Assembly (NCBI GenBank): GCA_022843545.1
Contig: JALHNL010000003.1
Coordinates: 1-64,000, forward strand
DNA: 64,000 nt
Reading direction: 5' to 3'
Origin: Phycisphaerales bacterium
GTDB taxonomy: Bacteria > Planctomycetota > Phycisphaerae > Phycisphaerales > UBA1924
Below, piece after piece: positions 54,692 to 64,000 of the stretch. Under the pieces are notes generated by a model. The model searched no databases and was not told where the DNA came from. It was given only the letters and a program-made list of their open reading frames with translations. Each line of letters starts with the position of its first letter. Within the stretch, counting starts at the first letter, position 1. The position numbers and the translations under genes are program-made.

Positions 54692-55544
54692 GTGTCTTGC
54701 ACAACGACGACGCATATCGCCGACCAGCATAATTGCCGTGTGCGCTCGCTTTACACGCCATGCGGTCGTGTGTAGAGCTGCGAACCACCGACCATGCTCG
54801 ATTTGACCCGACAGCACCTCGGGGCTCGGCACAGGTGAGCTGCTGCGGAATGGTCGCATCCGGTTGGGTTGTCACTTCGGCCCTGCACTGCATGTTGTCA
54901 GAACGCCCCCGATCCGCTGGGAGGCATCACTGAGCGGAGCGGAGTGCCGGATCCGTCGCCGTCGCGCGTCAAACCGCTCTATTGCAGGAGTAGGTGCAGC
55001 CAACGTCCGAGATGGTGTGACAGATCATGGGATCTGGAGTTGAAGGCCTGCGTGGCGGCAAACCGGGCTCCGTTGTCTGCAGAGTCCGAGATCTCGTGGC
55101 GTGAACAGCGATTCGTCACAGAAGTAGTGTTCTGACGACATCGAGCACGAAACTCTGTCAACGCATCTATTCCGCGCTTGAACTCCAAGCAGCAGGCCGC
55201 GTAGTGTGATGCACGGGTCTGCTCTCCCCACGCACGGCGTGGCGGGTGCAGAACCAGACCTCGCGGCGAAGGGGCACGATGCTCCGACAGCTGCCGGCCC
55301 GCATCTCTTGCGGGCGTCCTAACCCCGGAGGCACGGCTTCCGGGCGAAACCCAGGCATGGCTTGGGCTGGGATCCAGACACAGCAGCACAACTGAGTCAG
55401 TCGTGCCGTCGCGATCTTGATCGCTGGCTCATCGCGTGCTCGCGGTGTGCTGGCGCTCCAGCGTCGGGTCGGCGTTCCCGTCCGCACGCGATGCCGCGGC
55501 CGCTTCGACGCGATCGATCCGGCGCCGGCGATTGGAGACCGTCC
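54692..55544. other. Intergenic stretch at the left flank of the phage-like genes
   Basis: About 850 bases without a credible gene. A small hairpin GCCCGCA/TGCGGGC (55297-55315) is present. No tRNA or clear att repeat is seen, but this gap is where a left end of the mobile element would be expected. Confidence 0.45.
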
Positions 55545-56954
55545 ATGGATCCGAACATCTATCTCAACAGTCCCGACCTGCCCCCGAAGCTGCCGCAAGG
55601 CACGCAGGTGCAGCTCATCCCGATCGAGCGCATCAACCCCGCGCCGTACAACCCGCGCGTCGACCTCAAGCCCGGCGATCCGGCGTACGACAAGCTCGTC
55701 AAGAGCATCGCCGAGTTCGGCCTCGTCGAGCCGCTGGTGTGGAACCAGCGCAGTGGGCATCTCGTCGGGGGCCACCAGCGGCTGAAGATCCTTCGCGATC
55801 GCGGCGACGAGACCGTTCCGGTCGTCGTCGTGGATCTATCGTCGCAGAAGGAGCGTGCCCTCAACCTCGCCCTCAACAAGATTCAGGGCGACTGGGACGA
55901 GACCAGGCTCGCCGAGGTGCTCCAGCACTTGATGCTGACGCCGCACCTCGATTGGGATATCACCGGCTTCGAGTTCGACGAGGCCAAGGACATCATCGCC
56001 GAGGTGCTCGCCGACTCAGAGGAAGAAGCCGAGGAGGATTTCGACGAAGAGCAGGAGCTGGCGAAGGCCGCGGCGCAGCCGACCGTCACCCAGCCCGGCG
56101 ACCTCATCCTCCTGGGCACCGATCCCGCCCGCCAGCACCGGCTGCTCTGCGGCGACAGCACCAACCCCGAGCACGTGCGCCGTCTCATGGACGGCCAGCG
56201 GGCGGCGCTCTTCGCCACCGATCCGCCGTACCTGGTCGACTACGACGGCACTAACCACCCCGGGGCCAAGGCGGGCGTGAAGAACAAGGACTGGTCGGGC
56301 ACCTACGGCGTGACCTGGGACGACGCAGACGCCAACAGCGATCTCTACGACCGCTTCATCGCGACCGCGGTGGCCGAGGCGATCGCGCCGAATGCCGCGT
56401 GGTACTGCTGGCATGCTTCGCGGCGCCAGGCGATGCTCGAGGCGGCGTGGAATCGCCACGGTGCGTTCGTGCACTGCCAGATCATCTGGGCCAAGAACCG
56501 CCCGGTGCTCACGCGGACGTGGTACGCCTGGCAGCACGAGCCGTGCCTGATGGGCTGGATCCGCGGCAACCTGCCCCACCGCGCCGACGAGTCGCGGCTC
56601 TCCACGGTCTGGTCGATCGACACCATCCCCAACGGCGACCAGCGCCCCGACCACCCCACGCCCAAGCCGCTGGAGGTCTTCGAGATCCCGATGCGGCAGC
56701 ACACCAGGCCCGGCGAGGTCTGCTACGAGCCCTTCGCCGGCAGTGGCACGCAGATCATCGCGGCACAGCGGCTGCGGCGGCGTTGTTTCGCGATCGAGAT
56801 CTCGCCGGTCTACTGCGACCTCATCGTGCGGCGGTTCATCAAGCTGGCCGGCGAGGACTCGGTGACGCCAGAGATCGCGGAGCGATACCGCGTGCGCGAG
56901 GCACCCACACAGATGGTTGAGACGGCTGCTCAACCCACGGAGGGCGGGCAGTGA
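55545..56954 (+). CDS. ParB-like nuclease/DNA methyltransferase fusion (phage type)
   Basis: A 469-residue two-domain protein. The N-terminal ParB/sulfiredoxin-like domain has IERINPAPYNPR, KLVKSIAEFGLVEPLVW and LVGGHQRLKILRD. An acidic linker (EEEAEEDFDEEQEL) leads to an N4/N6 DNA methyltransferase domain with the catalytic DPPY in ATDPPYLVDYDG and the SAM motif FAGSGTQIIAAQRL near the end, so the order is that of beta-class amino-methyltransferases. Such fusions are common in prophages beside terminase genes. The ATG at 55545 opens MDPNIYLNSPDL. It overlaps the next gene by 4 bases. Confidence 0.9.
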   Translation: MDPNIYLNSPDLPPKLPQGTQVQLIPIERINPAPYNPRVDLKPGDPAYDKLVKSIAEFGLVEPLVWNQRSGHLVGGHQRLKILRDRGDETVPVVVVDLSSQKERALNLALNKIQGDWDETRLAEVLQHLMLTPHLDWDITGFEFDEAKDIIAEVLADSEEEAEEDFDEEQELAKAAAQPTVTQPGDLILLGTDPARQHRLLCGDSTNPEHVRRLMDGQRAALFATDPPYLVDYDGTNHPGAKAGVKNKDWSGTYGVTWDDADANSDLYDRFIATAVAEAIAPNAAWYCWHASRRQAMLEAAWNRHGAFVHCQIIWAKNRPVLTRTWYAWQHEPCLMGWIRGNLPHRADESRLSTVWSIDTIPNGDQRPDHPTPKPLEVFEIPMRQHTRPGEVCYEPFAGSGTQIIAAQRLRRRCFAIEISPVYCDLIVRRFIKLAGEDSVTPEIAERYRVREAPTQMVETAAQPTEGGQ

Positions 56955-57793
56955 GTGAACGCCACGACCCATTGATCCCAGAGGAGCAAGGCGGCGGCGT
57001 TGAGCAAACGCCGCCGCCTCGCGCGCAGAGGCCAGATGTCGAACCCGAAGAACCAGTCGAGACCGACCACACGACGGTGCTCGACATCCTCCGCGCTATC
57101 AAGTCGGTTCAAATCAACCCGCGCAACGTCCACCCCGACGACCGGCGGCTGTGCGTGGCCCATCTCGTGGGCGAAGGGTTGTCGGTCTCCGAGGTGGCAC
57201 AGGTGCTGCGGATCAGCGTGCGCACGGTTGCCCGTGACCGCCGGGCGATCAACGAGGAGAACGCGATCCAGCCCGACGCACGGCTGGCCGGCCTGTACGC
57301 GGGCCGGCTCGCCGCGGAGGCCGAGGCGACGATCGGCCGCATCCGCCGCGTCACCCGCGACAAGGACACGCCGCACGCGGTCAAGATCGACGGCGAGTTC
57401 AAGTGCTTTGACATCCTCGACCGCTTCGTGCAGCGCATGCAATCCATGGGCTATCTGCCAACGGCCGCGCACCGGATCCAGGCAGATCTGACCCACAACA
57501 CCGCCGATCTGAGCAGCCTCGCGGAGCTCAAGGCCGAGCTCACCCGGCTCGAGTCCATCGACACCGAGTGCCGGGTCATCGAGTCGGATGGCATCGACGA
57601 CGCTATGGGTGACGCGTCCGAAGACGACCTTCCTGCTCACGCCGGAGAGCATTCCGCACTGAGGGGTCCGGCCGGTGCTCCCATGCCTCGAGCCCAGACA
57701 CGCGTTGAACGCGAGCGGCTGGAGGAGCAGGATCTCAAGCGACGCATTGAAGAGAAGTGGAGGACCAAGAAGCCCGATGTCCAAAACCTCTGA
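56951..57793 (+). CDS. Phage-type HTH protein, possible small terminase
   Basis: A 280-residue protein. Around residues 74-98, GLSVSEVAQVLRISVRTVARD is a clear helix-turn-helix. The middle (ERERLEEQDLKRR at the end, and long helical parts before it) is coiled-coil-like, and an acidic patch follows. Its place between a ParB-methyltransferase and the large terminase fits a DNA-recognising small terminase, but no family match can be claimed. It overlaps the terminase start by 17 bases. Confidence 0.6.
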   Translation: MSERHDPLIPEEQGGGVEQTPPPRAQRPDVEPEEPVETDHTTVLDILRAIKSVQINPRNVHPDDRRLCVAHLVGEGLSVSEVAQVLRISVRTVARDRRAINEENAIQPDARLAGLYAGRLAAEAEATIGRIRRVTRDKDTPHAVKIDGEFKCFDILDRFVQRMQSMGYLPTAAHRIQADLTHNTADLSSLAELKAELTRLESIDTECRVIESDGIDDAMGDASEDDLPAHAGEHSALRGPAGAPMPRAQTRVERERLEEQDLKRRIEEKWRTKKPDVQNL

Positions 57794-59381
57794 CACCCTC
57801 GTCGGCGTGCGGACGGCGCTCTCGCTTCACCGACGGACGCTCGCGTCGCAATCGCCGCGTGCGTTCGCCAAGGTGTACCTCGCGCGTCACTTCCGCTTGA
57901 AGCCTTCGCGCATGCACGAGGGGGTCTTCGAGCTGCTGGGTCAGGCCACCCACGAGCGCTCGAAGCGCCTAGCCATCGCCGCGCCGCGCGGCCACGCCAA
58001 GAGCACCGTCGTCAGCCTTGCCTACGTGCTCTGGTCGGCGCTGTACCGGCACGAGCCACTGATCCTGCTGGTGTCCGCCACCCGCGAGCAAGCCGTGCAG
58101 CTGCTCAAGAACGTCAAGGACGAGATCCAGGGCAACGAGCTCCTGCTGGAAGACTTCCCGGAGGTCTGCTCACGACCGGGCGAGGGCCGCACGCCCAAGC
58201 CGTGGCGCGACAACAACATCCTCCTCCGCAACGGCGTGATGATCCGTGCCCTCGGCAGCGGCCAGGGTCTCCGCGGCGTGCGCCACGGGGCCAGCAGGCC
58301 CAGCCTGATTATCGGTGACGACCTTGAGAACCAGGAGCAGTGCGAGTCGCCCGAGCAGCGCGCCAAGATGCGCGACTGGTTCGAGAAGACGCTGCTCAAG
58401 GCCGGCGACGGGCGCACCAACGTGGTGGTCGTCGGCACCGTCCTCCACTACGACTCGCTTCTGGCCACGCTGGTCAACCCCGTCCGCGGCAAGGGTTCGG
58501 GCTGGGACAGCCGCGTGTACCGCGCCGTCGAGTCCTTCAGCGAGCGTGCGGACCTCTGGGACCGCTGGGAGTCGATCCGAGTCGGCGAGACCGAGCACGA
58601 CGGCCGGCGCGGCCCCGAGGCGTCATCGGCGTTCTTCGATGCGAACAGACAGGAGATGCTCCGCGGTACGCGCGTGCTCTGGCCCGAGATGGAGGACTAC
58701 CACCGGCTCATGCAGATCCGCGTCGACGAAGGTCGGCTGAGCTTCCAATCCGAGAAGCAGAACGAGCCGCTCGACCCCGAGCAGTGCCTCTTCTCATCGG
58801 CATCGTTCCGCTACTGGGACGACGAGAGCTCTGACCCTTCGGATCCCGCGGCTCTGCTCCGCCGGCTCGGCCCGCACACCCGCATCTACGGCGCCTGCGA
58901 CCCCAGCCTCGGCCGGCACGTCGGCCGCGGCGACTACACCGCGATCATCACCGTGGCCAAGGACACCAGGGACGACTCGATCTACATCCTCGACGCCGAC
59001 ATCGCGCGCCGCAAGCCCGAGCAGACCATCGAGCGCATCCTCGCGCTGGCGGGCGTGTACCGCTACGACGACTTCATCGTCGAGGCCAACCAGTTCCAGG
59101 AGATCATGGTCCGCCAGCTCGAGCACCTCGCCCGCACCCGTGGGGTGCGCCTCTACCCCCGCGCGGTGAACAACACCGCTAACAAGCAGGCCCGGGTGGA
59201 GGGCCTCGAACCGCTGATCAGCTCCGGCCGCCTCAAGTTCAGCCGCCGGCAATCCACGCTGCTGGACCAGCTCCGCCACTTCCCCCTCGGCGCCCACGAC
59301 GACGGCCCCGACGCCCTCGAGATCGTCGTCACCCGCGCCGTCGAACGCCGCACGGCGAAGTTCGGGCGGTACGTGATGTGA
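57777..59381 (+). CDS. Phage terminase large subunit
   Basis: The motor/nuclease that packages phage DNA. The 534-residue protein shows an adenine-site and Walker A region AIAAPRGHAKSTVVSLAY, Walker B-like LIIGDDLENQEQ and motif III-type VVVVGTVLHYDSLL. The C-terminal RNase H-like nuclease has GACDPSLGRHVGRGDYTAI, FIVEANQFQEIMV and a final HDDGPDALEI, which carry the metal-binding acids. The ATG at 57777 overlaps the HTH gene. No portal or capsid gene lies within the window, so this is part of a prophage, gene transfer agent or remnant. Confidence 0.9.
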   Translation: MSKTSDTLVGVRTALSLHRRTLASQSPRAFAKVYLARHFRLKPSRMHEGVFELLGQATHERSKRLAIAAPRGHAKSTVVSLAYVLWSALYRHEPLILLVSATREQAVQLLKNVKDEIQGNELLLEDFPEVCSRPGEGRTPKPWRDNNILLRNGVMIRALGSGQGLRGVRHGASRPSLIIGDDLENQEQCESPEQRAKMRDWFEKTLLKAGDGRTNVVVVGTVLHYDSLLATLVNPVRGKGSGWDSRVYRAVESFSERADLWDRWESIRVGETEHDGRRGPEASSAFFDANRQEMLRGTRVLWPEMEDYHRLMQIRVDEGRLSFQSEKQNEPLDPEQCLFSSASFRYWDDESSDPSDPAALLRRLGPHTRIYGACDPSLGRHVGRGDYTAIITVAKDTRDDSIYILDADIARRKPEQTIERILALAGVYRYDDFIVEANQFQEIMVRQLEHLARTRGVRLYPRAVNNTANKQARVEGLEPLISSGRLKFSRRQSTLLDQLRHFPLGAHDDGPDALEIVVTRAVERRTAKFGRYVM

Positions 59382-59453: not shown

Positions 59454-60497
59454 TCACCTTCGCGTGATGAGGGCGATCACCTTGTCGACATGCCGGCGGG
59501 CCTCGACCACCACGTCGCCGTCCCCGATGGGGCCGCCACCCGAGGTGGTCCAATCTCTGAGGGACTCGACGCTTCGTAGAGTAACGCCCGCATCCGTGAC
59601 GGACGGGTCGCTGAGACGGGCGATCACCGAAGTCTGAGGTACGCGCATATTCAAGTGAAACCGAAGTCCCGCGCTTCGGGCAAGTTCATTGCCTCCGGCA
59701 GCAAGCACACGCAGCGCCGGCTGAGGCTTGAGCTCGGGGAACAGGCCCGGCGAGCTGGTCATGTCACGCTCACCCTTCTTCAAGCCCAAGCCCGCTTCGA
59801 TGGTCACCGCTTGCACCGGCGCCCGTGTGGCAACGGCGATGAGTGTCGCGTGGAAACTTGCCCGCGGGCAATCCGATGCACGGATCTGCTCGACGACGTC
59901 AAAGTTCAATCCCCCGGCCCGTTCGACGGCCTTTCGCACGACAGGCGCGAACAGATCATCGAAGAACCCCACTTCAGCGGCGATCTTGTCCATCAGTTGC
60001 TCGATCGGGTCACGGTTGACCGTGGACCGATGAAAGGGCAAGGCCATCTGGCCCCTGACGAGAGTGAGGACGTGAGCGATCTCGTGCCACCGTGTAAAGA
60101 AACGGCGGGCCGCTTTGTCACCACGGCAGTCAATAATCGCGACGAACTGATCGAGACATGAGGGCGTCGCGTTCTCTCGGCGGATTAGCGTCGCAAAGGT
60201 CTCGGGCCCGAAACCGTCGCGCTGTGCGGCAAAGACGTACTCGCCTTTCGCCACGTACTTGGCGATGACCGCGTCGAGCTCGTCATCAGAGCTGAACTCC
60301 TCGATCACCAATCGCAGTTTCTTGCGCACGAGTGCCTCGAGGTCGTCGAGCGTTCGGACATTGGGGGCGCCGGAGAGCCATCCGGCGATCCGCTGTTTGC
60401 AGAACTCGATAATGGCCTCGGTGGGCACTTCGCGCCAATCGAGCCCGAGATCGGCCGCCATCTGGATCACTTTTTGATCGCGGTCGATGACGCTCAT
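59454..60497 (-). CDS. CapP-like ImmA/IrrE-family metallopeptidase
   Basis: A 347-residue protein with a gluzincin site: HEIAH at about residues 138-142 (TRWHEIAHVLTL) and a third ligand candidate Glu in KIAAEVGFFDDLF (about 175). The remaining C-terminal part resembles the sensor half of such proteins. In CBASS loci, CapP of this family cleaves the repressor CapH after a DNA-damage signal. The overlap of 4 bases with the HTH gene and the placement beside a CBASS-type operon fit that role, which is inferred here. Confidence 0.82.
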   Translation of the reverse strand: MSVIDRDQKVIQMAADLGLDWREVPTEAIIEFCKQRIAGWLSGAPNVRTLDDLEALVRKKLRLVIEEFSSDDELDAVIAKYVAKGEYVFAAQRDGFGPETFATLIRRENATPSCLDQFVAIIDCRGDKAARRFFTRWHEIAHVLTLVRGQMALPFHRSTVNRDPIEQLMDKIAAEVGFFDDLFAPVVRKAVERAGGLNFDVVEQIRASDCPRASFHATLIAVATRAPVQAVTIEAGLGLKKGERDMTSSPGLFPELKPQPALRVLAAGGNELARSAGLRFHLNMRVPQTSVIARLSDPSVTDAGVTLRSVESLRDWTTSGGGPIGDGDVVVEARRHVDKVIALITRR

Positions 60498-60895
60498 AGG
60501 AACCCCTTCACCGACTCGTAGAACTTTCGCCAGTCGAAGTTGTCCCCCGGGCTGCGGTCGTTGGCGCTTCGATGCGCGAGTATCTGCTGCCGCATCTTCA
60601 GCAGCATCAAGACCTTGCGGAACCCCAATCCTTCCTGGCTGGCGAACTCCGCAAGAGACGAGGGGATCTCAATGTCCTTGGGAGTTGGCTGCTCGGCTTC
60701 GTCCCCAGTCATCAGATAGTCGAGCGTGACCCCAAGCACCCGCGCGAGGTCGAGGAGCTTCTCGGCGCTGATCCCGCGCTTGCCGTTCTCAAGATCCGAC
60801 AGGAATCCCTTGCTGATGCCGGCCTTCTGGCCCAAGACGTCCTGCGTCCATTCGAGCTCTTCACGCCGCGTTTTGATCCGTGCACCGAGTTCCAT
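60494..60895 (-). CDS. CapH-like XRE-family repressor
   Basis: A 133-residue protein with an N-terminal XRE helix-turn-helix (RIKTRREELEWTQDVLGQKA, GISKGFLSDLENGKRGIS) and a helical C-terminal half that may dimerise. It precedes and overlaps the ImmA-like peptidase gene and diverges from the CBASS-type operon, as CapH does in CapH-CapP controlled systems. The ATG at 60895 is used: the first part of the longer frame lies over the promoter. It would repress both divergent promoters. Confidence 0.85.
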   Translation of the reverse strand: MELGARIKTRREELEWTQDVLGQKAGISKGFLSDLENGKRGISAEKLLDLARVLGVTLDYLMTGDEAEQPTPKDIEIPSSLAEFASQEGLGFRKVLMLLKMRQQILAHRSANDRSPGDNFDWRKFYESVKGFL

Positions 60896-60950
60896 GCCCT
60901 GCTCCTTGACCCTGGCCACGGCCTTGTGGGAAGGGGGACGACGGTACGAG

Positions 60951-60979
60951 ATTGTACCACATCGGTCAAGATCGGTCAT
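60951..60979 (-). promoter_or_regulatory. Promoter of the CapH/CapP-like pair with direct repeats
   Basis: On the minus strand, ATGACC (60974-60979), 17 bases, TACAAT (60951-60956). The direct repeat ATCGGTCA occurs at 60961-60968 and 60971-60978, between the boxes, and is a candidate operator for the XRE protein. Confidence 0.5.
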
Positions 60980-61019
60980 TTGACATCACTGACAGCGAAC
61001 ATATCATGTATAGCGAACA
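60980..61019 (+). promoter_or_regulatory. Promoter of the CBASS-type operon with repeats at the -10 box
   Basis: TTGACA at 60980-60985, 16 bases, TATCAT at 61002-61007. The 8-base repeat AGCGAACA occurs at 60994-61001 and 61012-61019, on both sides of the -10 box. The -35 box abuts the -35 of the divergent promoter, so one bound repressor could close both. Confidence 0.6.
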
Positions 61020-61068
61020 CGCCCGCAGCGGGCATATCCGCGGGTGCGGCGTCCGGAGGATCCAGCCC

Positions 61069-62202
61069 ATGTCGACGATCACCGCGTCTGCGAATCCCAC
61101 GGTCGATGGCCTCGTTGAGGCAGTCACGGTCATGCTTCAGCTCCCGCCGTCGCTCGAGCAACAGGCCCGGGAGCGCGCGGCAGGCGTCGCCGAATGGCTC
61201 AACTCCCCGGGCACACTCCTCGCGCGGTATGCCCCGGAAATCCATGATCAGGGGTCGATGCGGCACGGGACCACCGTCCACCCCAAGCACTACACCGAGT
61301 ACGACCTCGACCTGGTTTGCCTCCTGCGCCTGCTTGGCGCGGACAACTTGATGACGCCCGACGAACTCTACGAGCTGGTCTATCAGCGCCTCCACGAGAG
61401 CCCGGTGTACCGGCCCCTCCTCAAGCGGATGAACCGCTGCATCAGACTTGTCTACGCGAACGATTTTCATCTCGACATTCTCCCGGCCCGGCCCGACTGG
61501 ACGCGTGGTGGCACCTGTGTGCTCGTGCCCGACCGAGAGCGCCGCTGCTGGAAGCCCAGCAATCCGAAGGGCTTTGCTGAGTGGTTCGACCGTCAGGCCA
61601 CCAGCGGTGGCCGGGTGATGGAACGCTACCTCGGTAGGGTCGTCACCGCGTCCGATCGGCTTCAGATGAAGGCGACTCTGCGGCGGGTCGTGCAGCTGAT
61701 GAAGCGTCGGCGCGACATCCGTTTCGACGGCGATCAGTCGTGCGCGCGCTCGGTGGTCTTGACGACGCTGGCGGGTGCCGACTACGACGGGCAGCTCCTC
61801 TGCACCGACGCCCTGATCTCCGTACTCGACGCCATCATCGATGCCTTTGGTGGTCATATCGATCCGCCGCCCGTGCTCAACCCGACCAACCCCGACGAGA
61901 ACTTTGCCGAGAAATGGACACGCAAGACCTTTGCCCAGTTCATGGAGTATGTGCGTGTGTTCCGGTATGAGATGGAGGAACTCCTCGACTTGCACGACCT
62001 GGAGGAGATCCACGCCAAGCTCAAGGCGATGTTCGGCGAGGGCGTCGCGACCGACGTGGTCAAGGAACTCGGCGGGCGGATGCGCGCCGCCAAGAACCAG
62101 CGAGCACTGCGGTGGACGGGTCCAGCCGTCTCGCTCACCGCCGCTCCGATCGCAGAGGCCAGGACAATCCCAGCGAACACCTTTCATGGCGACCATGTTT
62201 GA
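61069..62202 (+). CDS. CD-NTase (CBASS cyclic oligonucleotide synthase), first of two
   Basis: A 377-residue nucleotidyltransferase of the cGAS/DncV-like family. The catalytic block is G-S at about residues 62-63 followed by MRHGTTVHPKHYTEYDLDLV, with acids at 79 and 81; the third Asp is at 136 in FHLDILPA. The family uses these to make cyclic di- or trinucleotides after phage infection. It is the first gene of the operon; an ATG at 61069 follows GGAGGA. The region after 200 is helical, as in the family. All three active-site acids are present, so the enzyme should be active. Confidence 0.9.
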   Translation: MSTITASANPTVDGLVEAVTVMLQLPPSLEQQARERAAGVAEWLNSPGTLLARYAPEIHDQGSMRHGTTVHPKHYTEYDLDLVCLLRLLGADNLMTPDELYELVYQRLHESPVYRPLLKRMNRCIRLVYANDFHLDILPARPDWTRGGTCVLVPDRERRCWKPSNPKGFAEWFDRQATSGGRVMERYLGRVVTASDRLQMKATLRRVVQLMKRRRDIRFDGDQSCARSVVLTTLAGADYDGQLLCTDALISVLDAIIDAFGGHIDPPPVLNPTNPDENFAEKWTRKTFAQFMEYVRVFRYEMEELLDLHDLEEIHAKLKAMFGEGVATDVVKELGGRMRAAKNQRALRWTGPAVSLTAAPIAEARTIPANTFHGDHV

Positions 62203-62641
62203 ACGAATCCGCACGATCGGTGTCCACGAGCAGCTCGCGCTGATGCGGCTTCTGCACCCGCAGTTCCGCACCACCGTGCAGGAAGGTGTTCTCCTTTGCC
62301 GCGGAGCGATAAGGCCGACTTCCCTGAACCGCACCTACTTGGTCCGCGTCGAATACCGGGCCCCCGAGGCGCCGCTTTCCTTCGTAGACGATCCGCCGCT
62401 CCGCCGTCGAAACCAGGACGAGCGCATCCCTCACACTTACGCGGGGGACCGACCTTGTCTCTACCTGCCCGGAGTGAACGAATGGCGATCAGACAAGCGC
62501 ATCGCCCAGACCATCATCCCGTGGCTCTCCGAATGGCTCTTCTACTACGAGGTGTGGCGTGCAACGGGTGAATGGATGGGAGGGGGAGTCCATCCGACCG
62601 GGCCGCGGGAACCACGCGGACGCACCAGGGAGGTGGCATGA
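62186..62641 (+). CDS. Stand-alone E2-like protein of CBASS type
   Basis: A 151-residue protein like the short ubiquitin-conjugating-E2-like partners of CBASS. Conserved features are RTYLVRVEY, IPHTYAGDRPCLYLPG with the candidate catalytic Cys at about residue 91, and IAQTIIPWLSEWLFYYEVW followed by GEWMGGGVHP. In type II CBASS such proteins link or prime the CD-NTase; here no E1 and no JAB gene is seen in the window. It overlaps the CD-NTase by 17 bases and the next gene by 4, so production is tightly coupled. An ATG at 62195 is an alternative start. Confidence 0.82.
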   Translation: MATMFERIRTIGVHEQLALMRLLHPQFRTTVQEGVLLCRGAIRPTSLNRTYLVRVEYRAPEAPLSFVDDPPLRRRNQDERIPHTYAGDRPCLYLPGVNEWRSDKRIAQTIIPWLSEWLFYYEVWRATGEWMGGGVHPTGPREPRGRTREVA

Positions 62642-63396
62642 GCGGGCATAACTACTTAGCGTCTCTGTTGGCGGCCCAGAACCTCGACGACCGGGAGTTG
62701 CAGCCGCTCCGCAACGCCCGCGACGCGATCGAGCAGTGGCTCCGCGGCGAAATCGGTTCCGCACCCCGGATCTACTACGGGGGGTCCTTCGCCAAGGGCA
62801 CGATGCTCCGCGCCTCGTATGACCTGGACATCGTGGTCTACTTCCCATCCACGGACGCCAGGACGCTTCAGCAGTTGTTCACAGGCGTGCATCAGCGGCT
62901 GCTGGCCGGGAACCTGATCGTGCACCCGCGAACCGTCGCGCTCCGCCTTCCCTACGAGGGCGGCTTTCACATCGATATCGTCCCGGGGCGTGCTCAGGAT
63001 TCATCGTTTCGCTACGCCACGCTCTACAAGAACACGACGCCTCCGAGCACGCTCCAGACCAGCCTCAAGGTCCACATCGACGCGGTGAAGGACGCCGAGT
63101 TGAGCGAGGTGGTGCGCATCGCCAAGCTCTGGCGCCTGCGTCACGGCCTCGACGTATCCACGTTCGCGCTCGAGCTCGCGGTCGACCGCGCAATGCAGGG
63201 CGTGCGACGCGACGATCTGGGCACGGCGTTCTGGACCGTGCTGGGCTACCTCGCAGGCGAGTTCACTACGGCTCGTCTCGTCGACCCCGCCAACACGAAC
63301 AATGTCATCGAAGTGTCTCAAAGCACTCGGAATGTGGTCGCGGCGGGTGCGCAGCATTCCCGCGAGCAGAAGAACTGGTCAACGATCGTTTGGTAG
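62638..63396 (+). CDS. Second CD-NTase-fold nucleotidyltransferase
   Basis: A 252-residue enzyme with an independent complete active site: G49-S50 in YYGGSFAKGTMLRASYDLD, acids at about 62 and 64, and a third Asp at about 113 in FHIDIVPG. It is distinct in sequence from the first CD-NTase and shorter, closer to OAS/CCA-like minimal nucleotidyltransferases with a helical C-terminal domain (VVRIAKLWRLRHGLDVSTFALE). Two complete NTases in one operon is unusual for CBASS. It may make a second signal, modify tRNA or protein, or act on the same substrate. ATGA overlap with the E2 gene. Confidence 0.82.
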   Translation: MSGHNYLASLLAAQNLDDRELQPLRNARDAIEQWLRGEIGSAPRIYYGGSFAKGTMLRASYDLDIVVYFPSTDARTLQQLFTGVHQRLLAGNLIVHPRTVALRLPYEGGFHIDIVPGRAQDSSFRYATLYKNTTPPSTLQTSLKVHIDAVKDAELSEVVRIAKLWRLRHGLDVSTFALELAVDRAMQGVRRDDLGTAFWTVLGYLAGEFTTARLVDPANTNNVIEVSQSTRNVVAAGAQHSREQKNWSTIVW

Positions 63397-63408: not shown

Positions 63409-64000
63409 ATGCCCACGAGCATCCTCATCGTCCGTCATGCCGGTCCGTGGCCCGTCCCAGCCACCGCGATCGCGCCGGCGATCCCTGCACCGTTGAACGC
63501 GCTGCACCGCGAGGATTTCGAGGTGAACACGGAGCCTTTCAACGCCCAGATCGAGCAGGGTGATTGGAGTGGGCAAAGTCGGTTCCTCGCGGAAAGGGCC
63601 AGCGAGATCCACGCCAAGATGGCTCTGCTCACGGGTGCCGAACTGCATTACTTCGGTCTGGCCGAAGTGCCCCACGTGATTGCTATGGGCGCGTACCTCG
63701 GCGATGAGATTCCCATCGAGCTCCACGATTTCGACCGCGACGCCAAGTCGTGGGCCTGGCCAGAGTCAAAACGGACACTCGAAGCACGGGTGCTTGGGCT
63801 TCCGTCTGGCGACCCTATCCCCGCGGAGGGCTCTGTCGTCCTGCGCGTCGAGATCTCGTTCGCAATCTCCGACGAGGACGTGCATGACGCGGCCGGGGCC
63901 AAGCATCTCGCCGAGGTTCGGGTCACCCTGCGCGAAGGGCTTAACCCGGCGATCTGCAAGGTGCGGTCCCCAGCCGATGTCCAGGAGGTGCGCCTGCGCA
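63409..64000 (+). CDS. SAVED-domain protein (3' end outside window)
   Basis: The frame opens at an ATG 12 bases after the previous stop and runs without stop to the window edge (197 codons). From about residue 75 it resembles the SAVED cyclic-nucleotide sensor: LHYFGLAEVPHVIAMGAYLGDEIPIELHDFDRDAKSWAWP is the typical alpha/beta opening with P-x-x-x-A-x-x-x-G and a following acidic strand. The first 60 residues are short and carry no recognised effector domain, so an effector would have to lie beyond the edge or in another gene. It is the likely receptor for the operon's nucleotide signal. Confidence 0.65.
   Translation, partial: MPTSILIVRHAGPWPVPATAIAPAIPAPLNALHREDFEVNTEPFNAQIEQGDWSGQSRFLAERASEIHAKMALLTGAELHYFGLAEVPHVIAMGAYLGDEIPIELHDFDRDAKSWAWPESKRTLEARVLGLPSGDPIPAEGSVVLRVEISFAISDEDVHDAAGAKHLAEVRVTLREGLNPAICKVRSPADVQEVRLR

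What the first reader, a model, noticed from the sequence alone, without database searches (positions are those of the whole stretch)
59454..61068. CapH/CapP-like control module with back-to-back promoters
Seen: an XRE gene overlaps an HEIAH peptidase gene by 4 bases and diverges from the CBASS-type operon; two promoter candidates abut at their -35 boxes, and there are direct repeats ATCGGTCA x2 and AGCGAACA x2. Known: CapH-CapP pairs switch CBASS on after DNA damage. Inference: one repressor closes both promoters and is removed by proteolysis.
Basis: partly seen in the sequence, partly recalled or inferred. Interest (0 to 1): 0.7.

Follow-up and report, generated by a model that had tools for sequence, protein, structure and literature searches.

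The report
CapH/CapP-like switch for immune operons
A repressor gene and a protein-cutting enzyme gene sit back to back with an anti-phage CBASS operon; relatives in other planctomycetes show that this same switch, with the same promoter DNA tag, has been re-used next to several unrelated bacterial immune systems.

Summary
A CapH-like XRE gene (60494-60895, -) overlaps an HEIAH peptidase gene (59454-60497, -) by ATGA and diverges from a CBASS operon (CD-NTase, E2-like, second NTase, SAVED-peptidase). The peptidase has no Pfam match and only a marginal PADLOC capP match. Profile comparison with canonical CapP (hhalign P 7e-6) and structure search (PprI/IrrE, the top four PDB hits) make it a diverged CapP/PprI-type protease. 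Six further complete orthologous pairs were found, all in Planctomycetota and all with the same 4-base overlap. Five diverge from immune operons: short pAgo (two), Pycsar (two), CBASS (one). All seven loci carry GTTCGC-N10-GTCAA (one with two mismatches) in the operon promoter, at fixed spacing from its -35 box; flanking DNA is near random identity. A matrix built from the other six loci picks 61001-61018, over the operon's -10, as the best site in 81 kb. Closure of both promoters by one repressor is not shown: the operator covers the operon promoter, not clearly the regulator's. ssDNA-triggered proteolysis is inferred. Verdict: diverged CapH/CapP variant, a portable switch with a candidate operator.

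The parts
60494..60895 (-). CapH-like XRE repressor, 133 aa: HTH (res. 2-65) plus DdrO-like C-terminal dimerisation/cleavage region (predicted cleavage loop about res. 108-120)
   Evidence: Pfam HTH_3 1.9e-15; PADLOC capH 4.7e-13; CapH NTD 7t5u and full-length DdrO match; the C-terminal 104 aa have DdrO as the three best PDB hits
59454..60497 (-). CapP/PprI-like metallopeptidase, 347 aa: H138-E139-x-x-H142, third ligand candidate E166, ssDNA-cavity arginine candidate R131, C-terminal GAF-like part
   Evidence: No Pfam; capP E 0.0079; profile vs IrrE aligns HEXXH, E166, R131; hhalign vs canonical CapP P 6.9e-6 with shuffle control; AF2 model pLDDT 77, pTM 0.75, Foldseek top four = PprI/IrrE, E 2e-7 to 6e-6
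60494..60497 (-). ATGA stop/start overlap of the two regulator genes (conserved in all seven complete pairs)
60980..61007 (+). CBASS operon promoter: -35 TTGACA 60980-60985, -10 TATCAT 61002-61007
   Evidence: the -35 position is conserved in the homologues
61001..61018 (-). Probable CapH-like operator O1 GTTCGCTATACATGATAT, over the operon -10
   Evidence: Best match in the 81-kb contig (21.1 bits, next 12.4) to a matrix built only from the six other loci
60980..61000 (-). Operator O2 / conserved element GTTCGC-N10-GTCAA, in the operon -35/-10 spacer and -35
   Evidence: Six of seven loci exact, L007 with ATTCGG for GTTCGC; four divergent representatives share only this gapped 11-mer, 0 of 100 shuffles
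60951..60979 (-).
60941..60969 (-). Alternative regulator promoter: TTGACC-17-TACCGT, at about the offset seen in homologues (TTGAAA-17-TAGACT)
60961..60978 (+).
61069..62202 (+). CBASS CD-NTase (SMODS/DncV-like), 377 aa
   Evidence: Pfam SMODS 1.8e-10; PADLOC cyclase PDLC00780 1.7e-80
62186..62641 (+). CBASS E2-like protein, 151 aa
   Evidence: PADLOC E2 PDLC00864 6.7e-43
62638..63396 (+). Second nucleotidyltransferase, 252 aa
   Evidence: PADLOC cyclase PDLC00803 8.4e-61, full length
63409..64000 (+). SAVED-HExxH peptidase effector (600 aa; runs on to contig position 65211, L003 409-2211)
   Evidence: Pfam SAVED 5.6e-36; PADLOC effector 'Peptidase' PDLC00754 2e-86

Best explanation
A DNA-damage-type derepression switch of the CapH/CapP kind. 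In resting cells the XRE repressor binds tandem operators (GTTCGC-type, 60980-61018) across the -35/-10 of the divergent CBASS promoter and keeps the potentially suicidal CBASS operon low. When ssDNA accumulates during phage infection or damage, the PprI/CapP-type peptidase, made from the same transcript as the repressor, cuts the repressor in its DdrO-like C-terminal region, dimerisation is lost and the operon is transcribed. Shown here: genes, homology, operator conservation and position, repeated linkage to immune operons. Inferred: binding, repression, ssDNA sensing, cleavage, and any autoregulation.
For: XRE: capH model, CapH NTD 7t5u and full-length DdrO matches. Peptidase: HEXXH, E166 and R131 align with IrrE; profile homology to canonical CapP, whose member L032 matches the solved CapP 7t5t; Foldseek hits only PprI/IrrE at E<1e-3. 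The PprI ssDNA-cavity Arg85 sits 7 residues before HEXXH (PMC10904395); R131 has the same offset and is invariant in nine sequences. All seven complete pairs keep the 4-base overlap, and six diverge from immune operons. Operator. Recognition-helix residues are nearly invariant.
Against: No Pfam hit; capP model only E 0.0079 for the window protein and no hit for the seven relatives scanned. The operator is only partly palindromic (TGT-N7-ACA), and O2 in the window lacks the right half. No experiment. One pair (L019) has no recognised immune operon upstream.
Confidence: 0.82

Rival explanations
1. ImmR/ImmA-type switch of a mobile element or prophage that happens to lie beside CBASS; its real target is the element.
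For: Terminase and ParB-methylase genes lie directly left of the pair and a large serine recombinase about 13 kb to the right. ICEBs1 ImmR NTD 7t8i is among the XRE hits.
Against: In the homologues the pair diverges from immune operons, not integration or conjugation genes, and the conserved element sits in the immune promoter.
Confidence: 0.07
2. The repressor controls CBASS but the peptidase responds to another signal through its GAF-like part (for example a nucleotide) rather than ssDNA.
For: GAF/PAS domains of the phytochrome class are the next structural hits; the sequence is far from known CapP.
Against: PprI (complex 8sln) and CapP both use ssDNA (PMC10904395); R131 is kept.
Confidence: 0.15
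3. One repressor closes both divergent promoters, through the abutting -35 boxes.
For: Abutting candidate boxes; operator O2 ends at that junction; autoregulation is common in XRE pairs (general knowledge).
Against: Four homologues place the regulator's -35 12 bp away from the operon -35, outside the conserved element.
Confidence: 0.4
4. The conserved GTTCGC element is part of promoter strength or a site for another regulator, not the CapH-like operator.
For: GTCAA is simply the -35 on the other strand.
Against: GTTCGC lies in the -35/-10 spacer, is kept at exact spacing and repeated in tandem in at least three loci, and travels with the regulator pair while the immune genes change.
Confidence: 0.1

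Closest known systems
CapH/CapP (CBASS and other immune operons; Lau et al. 2022, cited in PMC13373217)
   Same: XRE repressor plus HEXXH peptidase as neighbours of immune operons; capH model match; detectable profile homology to canonical CapP
   Different: Peptidase outside Pfam and essentially outside the PADLOC capP model; 347 aa; found only in Planctomycetota in these searches; fold search returns PprI rather than solved CapP 7t5t
PprI(IrrE)/DdrO of Deinococcus
   Same: Full-length DdrO-like repressor; PprI-like fold; HEXXH, third ligand and cavity arginine aligned
   Different: Genes overlap; local immune target instead of a repair regulon; operator GTTCGC-type, not RDRM (TATGYYHTTARCRKA, PMC8533742); no genome-wide regulon seen
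ImmR/ImmA of ICEBs1-like elements
   Same: XRE repressor and metallopeptidase pair
   Different: Target is immune operons; no element genes in the conserved neighbourhood
CapW/BrxR and CapK/CapS
   Same: DNA-damage-responsive controllers of immune operons (PMC13373217)
   Different: Different protein families (WYL; kinase/STAS)

Membership tests
CapH/CapP | XRE-type HTH repressor matching CapH | tested here: met
   PADLOC capH 4.7e-13; 7t5u in PDB hits
CapH/CapP | HEXXH metallopeptidase | tested here: met
   H138-E139-I-x-H142 and E166 invariant in nine sequences
CapH/CapP | Peptidase matches the capP sequence model | tested here: inconclusive
   E 0.0079, too weak for assignment; profile-profile P 6.9e-6 with canonical CapP, score 48 vs at most 21.6 in 20 shuffles
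CapH/CapP | PprI-like fold with GAF-like C-terminus | tested here: met
   Foldseek E 2e-7 to 6e-6, TM 0.49-0.54 by target length, GAF/PAS domains next; model of medium confidence
CapH/CapP | Next to CBASS or another immune operon | tested here: met
   Window CBASS; pAgo, Pycsar, CBASS in homologues
CapH/CapP | Repressor binds the operon promoter | not testable with these tools
   Only indirect: conserved operator
CapH/CapP | ssDNA-stimulated cleavage of the repressor | not testable with these tools
   Needs biochemistry
PprI/DdrO | Repressor of DdrO domain plan | tested here: met
   DdrO aligned end to end; top three hits for the C-terminal part
PprI/DdrO | RDRM palindrome operator and dispersed regulon | tested here: not met
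   Conserved element is GTTCGC-N10-GTCAA; own-genome matches are at control level
ImmR/ImmA | Controls integration/conjugation genes | tested here: not met
   Conserved divergent neighbours are immune operons

The most novel reading that the evidence does not exclude
A diverged, Planctomycetota-specific CapP/PprI family forms a portable 'regulator plus operator' cassette that recruits unrelated immune systems (CBASS, Pycsar, short pAgo, possibly others) on its divergent side, and sometimes a second defence operon downstream of the peptidase, putting several systems under one damage signal; the operator is transferable and predicts new immune operons.
Probability: 0.5. Interest if true: 0.7.

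Novelty: new variant of a known kind. Interest (0 to 1): 0.58.

Why it matters
It gives a concrete candidate operator for a CapH-type repressor, places a peptidase family with no Pfam entry among PprI/CapP proteases, and shows one control cassette re-plugged next to CBASS, Pycsar and short Argonaute operons. Within a clade of 65-72% identical peptidases three different immune systems are the neighbours. The operator could be used to find unknown immune operons.

Tried and rejected
ATCGGTCA repeats as operator: not conserved. My own idea of an inverted GGTCA/TGACA array at 60962-60995 (note): present but not conserved, dropped. RDRM-like operator: rejected. Genome-wide regulon of the element: 7 hits vs 4 in the reversed control, chance. 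Viral contigs and plasmids: no homologues. First structure model with 6 sequences was poor (pLDDT 57), replaced by a 9-sequence model. The 161-aa XRE start at 60979: rejected, since it lies inside the promoters and lacks the conserved Shine-Dalgarno. L006/L013 (G277): broken fragment of a relative, no use.

Full report
What is there. On the minus strand an XRE gene (60494-60895) and an HEIAH peptidase gene (59454-60497) overlap by ATGA. They diverge from a plus-strand operon of CD-NTase (61069-62202), E2-like (62186-62641), second nucleotidyltransferase (62638-63396) and a SAVED-peptidase effector (63409 to contig 65211). PADLOC names all four operon genes as CBASS parts: cyclase 1.7e-80, E2 6.7e-43, cyclase 8.4e-61, effector 'Peptidase' 2e-86. 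A Wadjet JetABCD set follows.

The repressor. It matches Pfam HTH_3, PADLOC capH at 4.7e-13, the solved CapH N-domain 7t5u, and Deinococcus DdrO from end to end. With the C-terminal 104 residues alone the three best PDB hits are DdrO (E 0.012-0.05), aligned through its DW..(I/F)Y..(L/V)K end. DdrO is cut between Leu106 and Arg107 in the loop before that end (PMC8072749); the equivalent loop here is about residues 108-120 (inference).

The peptidase. Pfam has no credible match for any of eight members; the PADLOC capP match is marginal (0.0079) and seen for the window protein only. The nine-member profile finds IrrE as its best PDB hit (E 0.13) with HEXXH, the later Glu and the Arg seven residues before HEXXH in register. 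That Arg (Arg85 in D. geothermalis PprI) lines the ssDNA cavity (PMC10904395); here it is R131, invariant. Against nine CapP-model proteins from the phylum, of which L032 matches solved CapP 7t5t, hhalign gives P 6.9e-6, score 48; twenty column-shuffled controls reach at most 21.6. An AF2 model (pLDDT 77, pTM 0.75) returns PprI/IrrE as the only hits under 1e-3. I conclude it is a strongly diverged CapP/PprI-type protease, on medium-confidence structural evidence.

Relatives. Searches gave six other complete pairs, all in Planctomycetota; none came from viral contigs or plasmids. Most searches were of that phylum, so absence elsewhere rests on one pattern-based scan of genome contigs. All keep the 4-base overlap. 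Divergent neighbours: HNH plus short pAgo in L007 and L009 (pAgo_I 1e-144 for L007; L009 carries close homologues of the same two genes); Pycsar cyclase plus TIR effector in L010 and L024; CBASS cyclase (2e-112) plus 4TM effector in L012; no recognised system in L019. A distant pair, L020, faces a multiubiquitin-ThiF (Bub-type) operon, a context in which CapH/CapP is already reported (PMC13373217). Downstream of the peptidase, co-directional defence-like genes occur: SIR2 in L024; DUF6079 in L009, with a similar gene in L012 by eye. Peptidases of L007, L009, L010 and L012 are 65-72% identical and form a supported clade (99/96), yet face three different immune systems.

The operator. In regulator orientation the loci carry GTTCGC, ten bases, GTCAA, where GTCAA is the complement of the operon -35 TTGAC. 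Six of seven are exact; L007's proximal copy reads ATTCGG, with an exact GTTCGC 17 bp further upstream, so the strict all-seven test returns nothing, while the four most divergent representatives (window, L024, L019, L010) share exactly this one gapped 11-mer; shuffles never gave one (0 of 100). Pairwise identity is 0.78 in the element against 0.31-0.32 in the flanks over all seven, and 0.73 against 0.25-0.29 for the four representatives. Tandem copies lie 17-18 bp apart in the window, L019 and L007. A matrix built without the window places its best hit in the 81-kb contig at 61001-61018 (21.1 bits; next 12.4), over the operon -10.

Geometry and mechanism. The operators cover the operon promoter. 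Repression of the operon is thus the well-supported part, joint closure an open question. Proteolytic release on ssDNA is inferred from CapP and PprI.

Verdict. A diverged CapH/CapP variant with an identified candidate operator and clear cargo exchange; not a new kind of switch.

Noticed in passing
L003 2420-9092 (contig C3 65420-72092): Wadjet JetABCD directly after the CBASS operon, about 209 bp from the effector; whether it shares the CBASS control is unknown.
   Followed up: partly
L003 11668-13455: Large serine recombinase beyond Wadjet; with the terminase on the left this suggests an integrated element carrying the defence island.
   Followed up: no
window 55362-59381: ParB-methylase fusion, small terminase-like and TerL genes on + strand up to 73 bp before the peptidase gene: phage-like remnant.
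   Followed up: partly
window 63409-64000 / L003 409-2211: The CBASS effector is itself a SAVED-HExxH peptidase (HEYLH), so the locus has two different HEXXH proteases; a second NTase sits between E2 and effector.
   Followed up: partly
L019 3859-4128: The operator-bearing promoter faces only short ORFs, one with repeated GPKTV/HKRSKP peptides, instead of a known immune operon.
   Followed up: partly
L024 8116-10430: The Pycsar TIR effector appears cut short and is followed by a transposase-like gene.
   Followed up: no
L007 7294-12565: HNH-PNTD, short pAgo, PhoD-like phosphatase and trypsin-like genes in one direction: unusual pAgo neighbourhood.
   Followed up: partly
L009 1345-2250, L012 431-1441: ArdC-type antirestriction genes near the controlled operons (Pfam-tested in L009, by eye in L012), suggesting mobile elements.
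   Followed up: no
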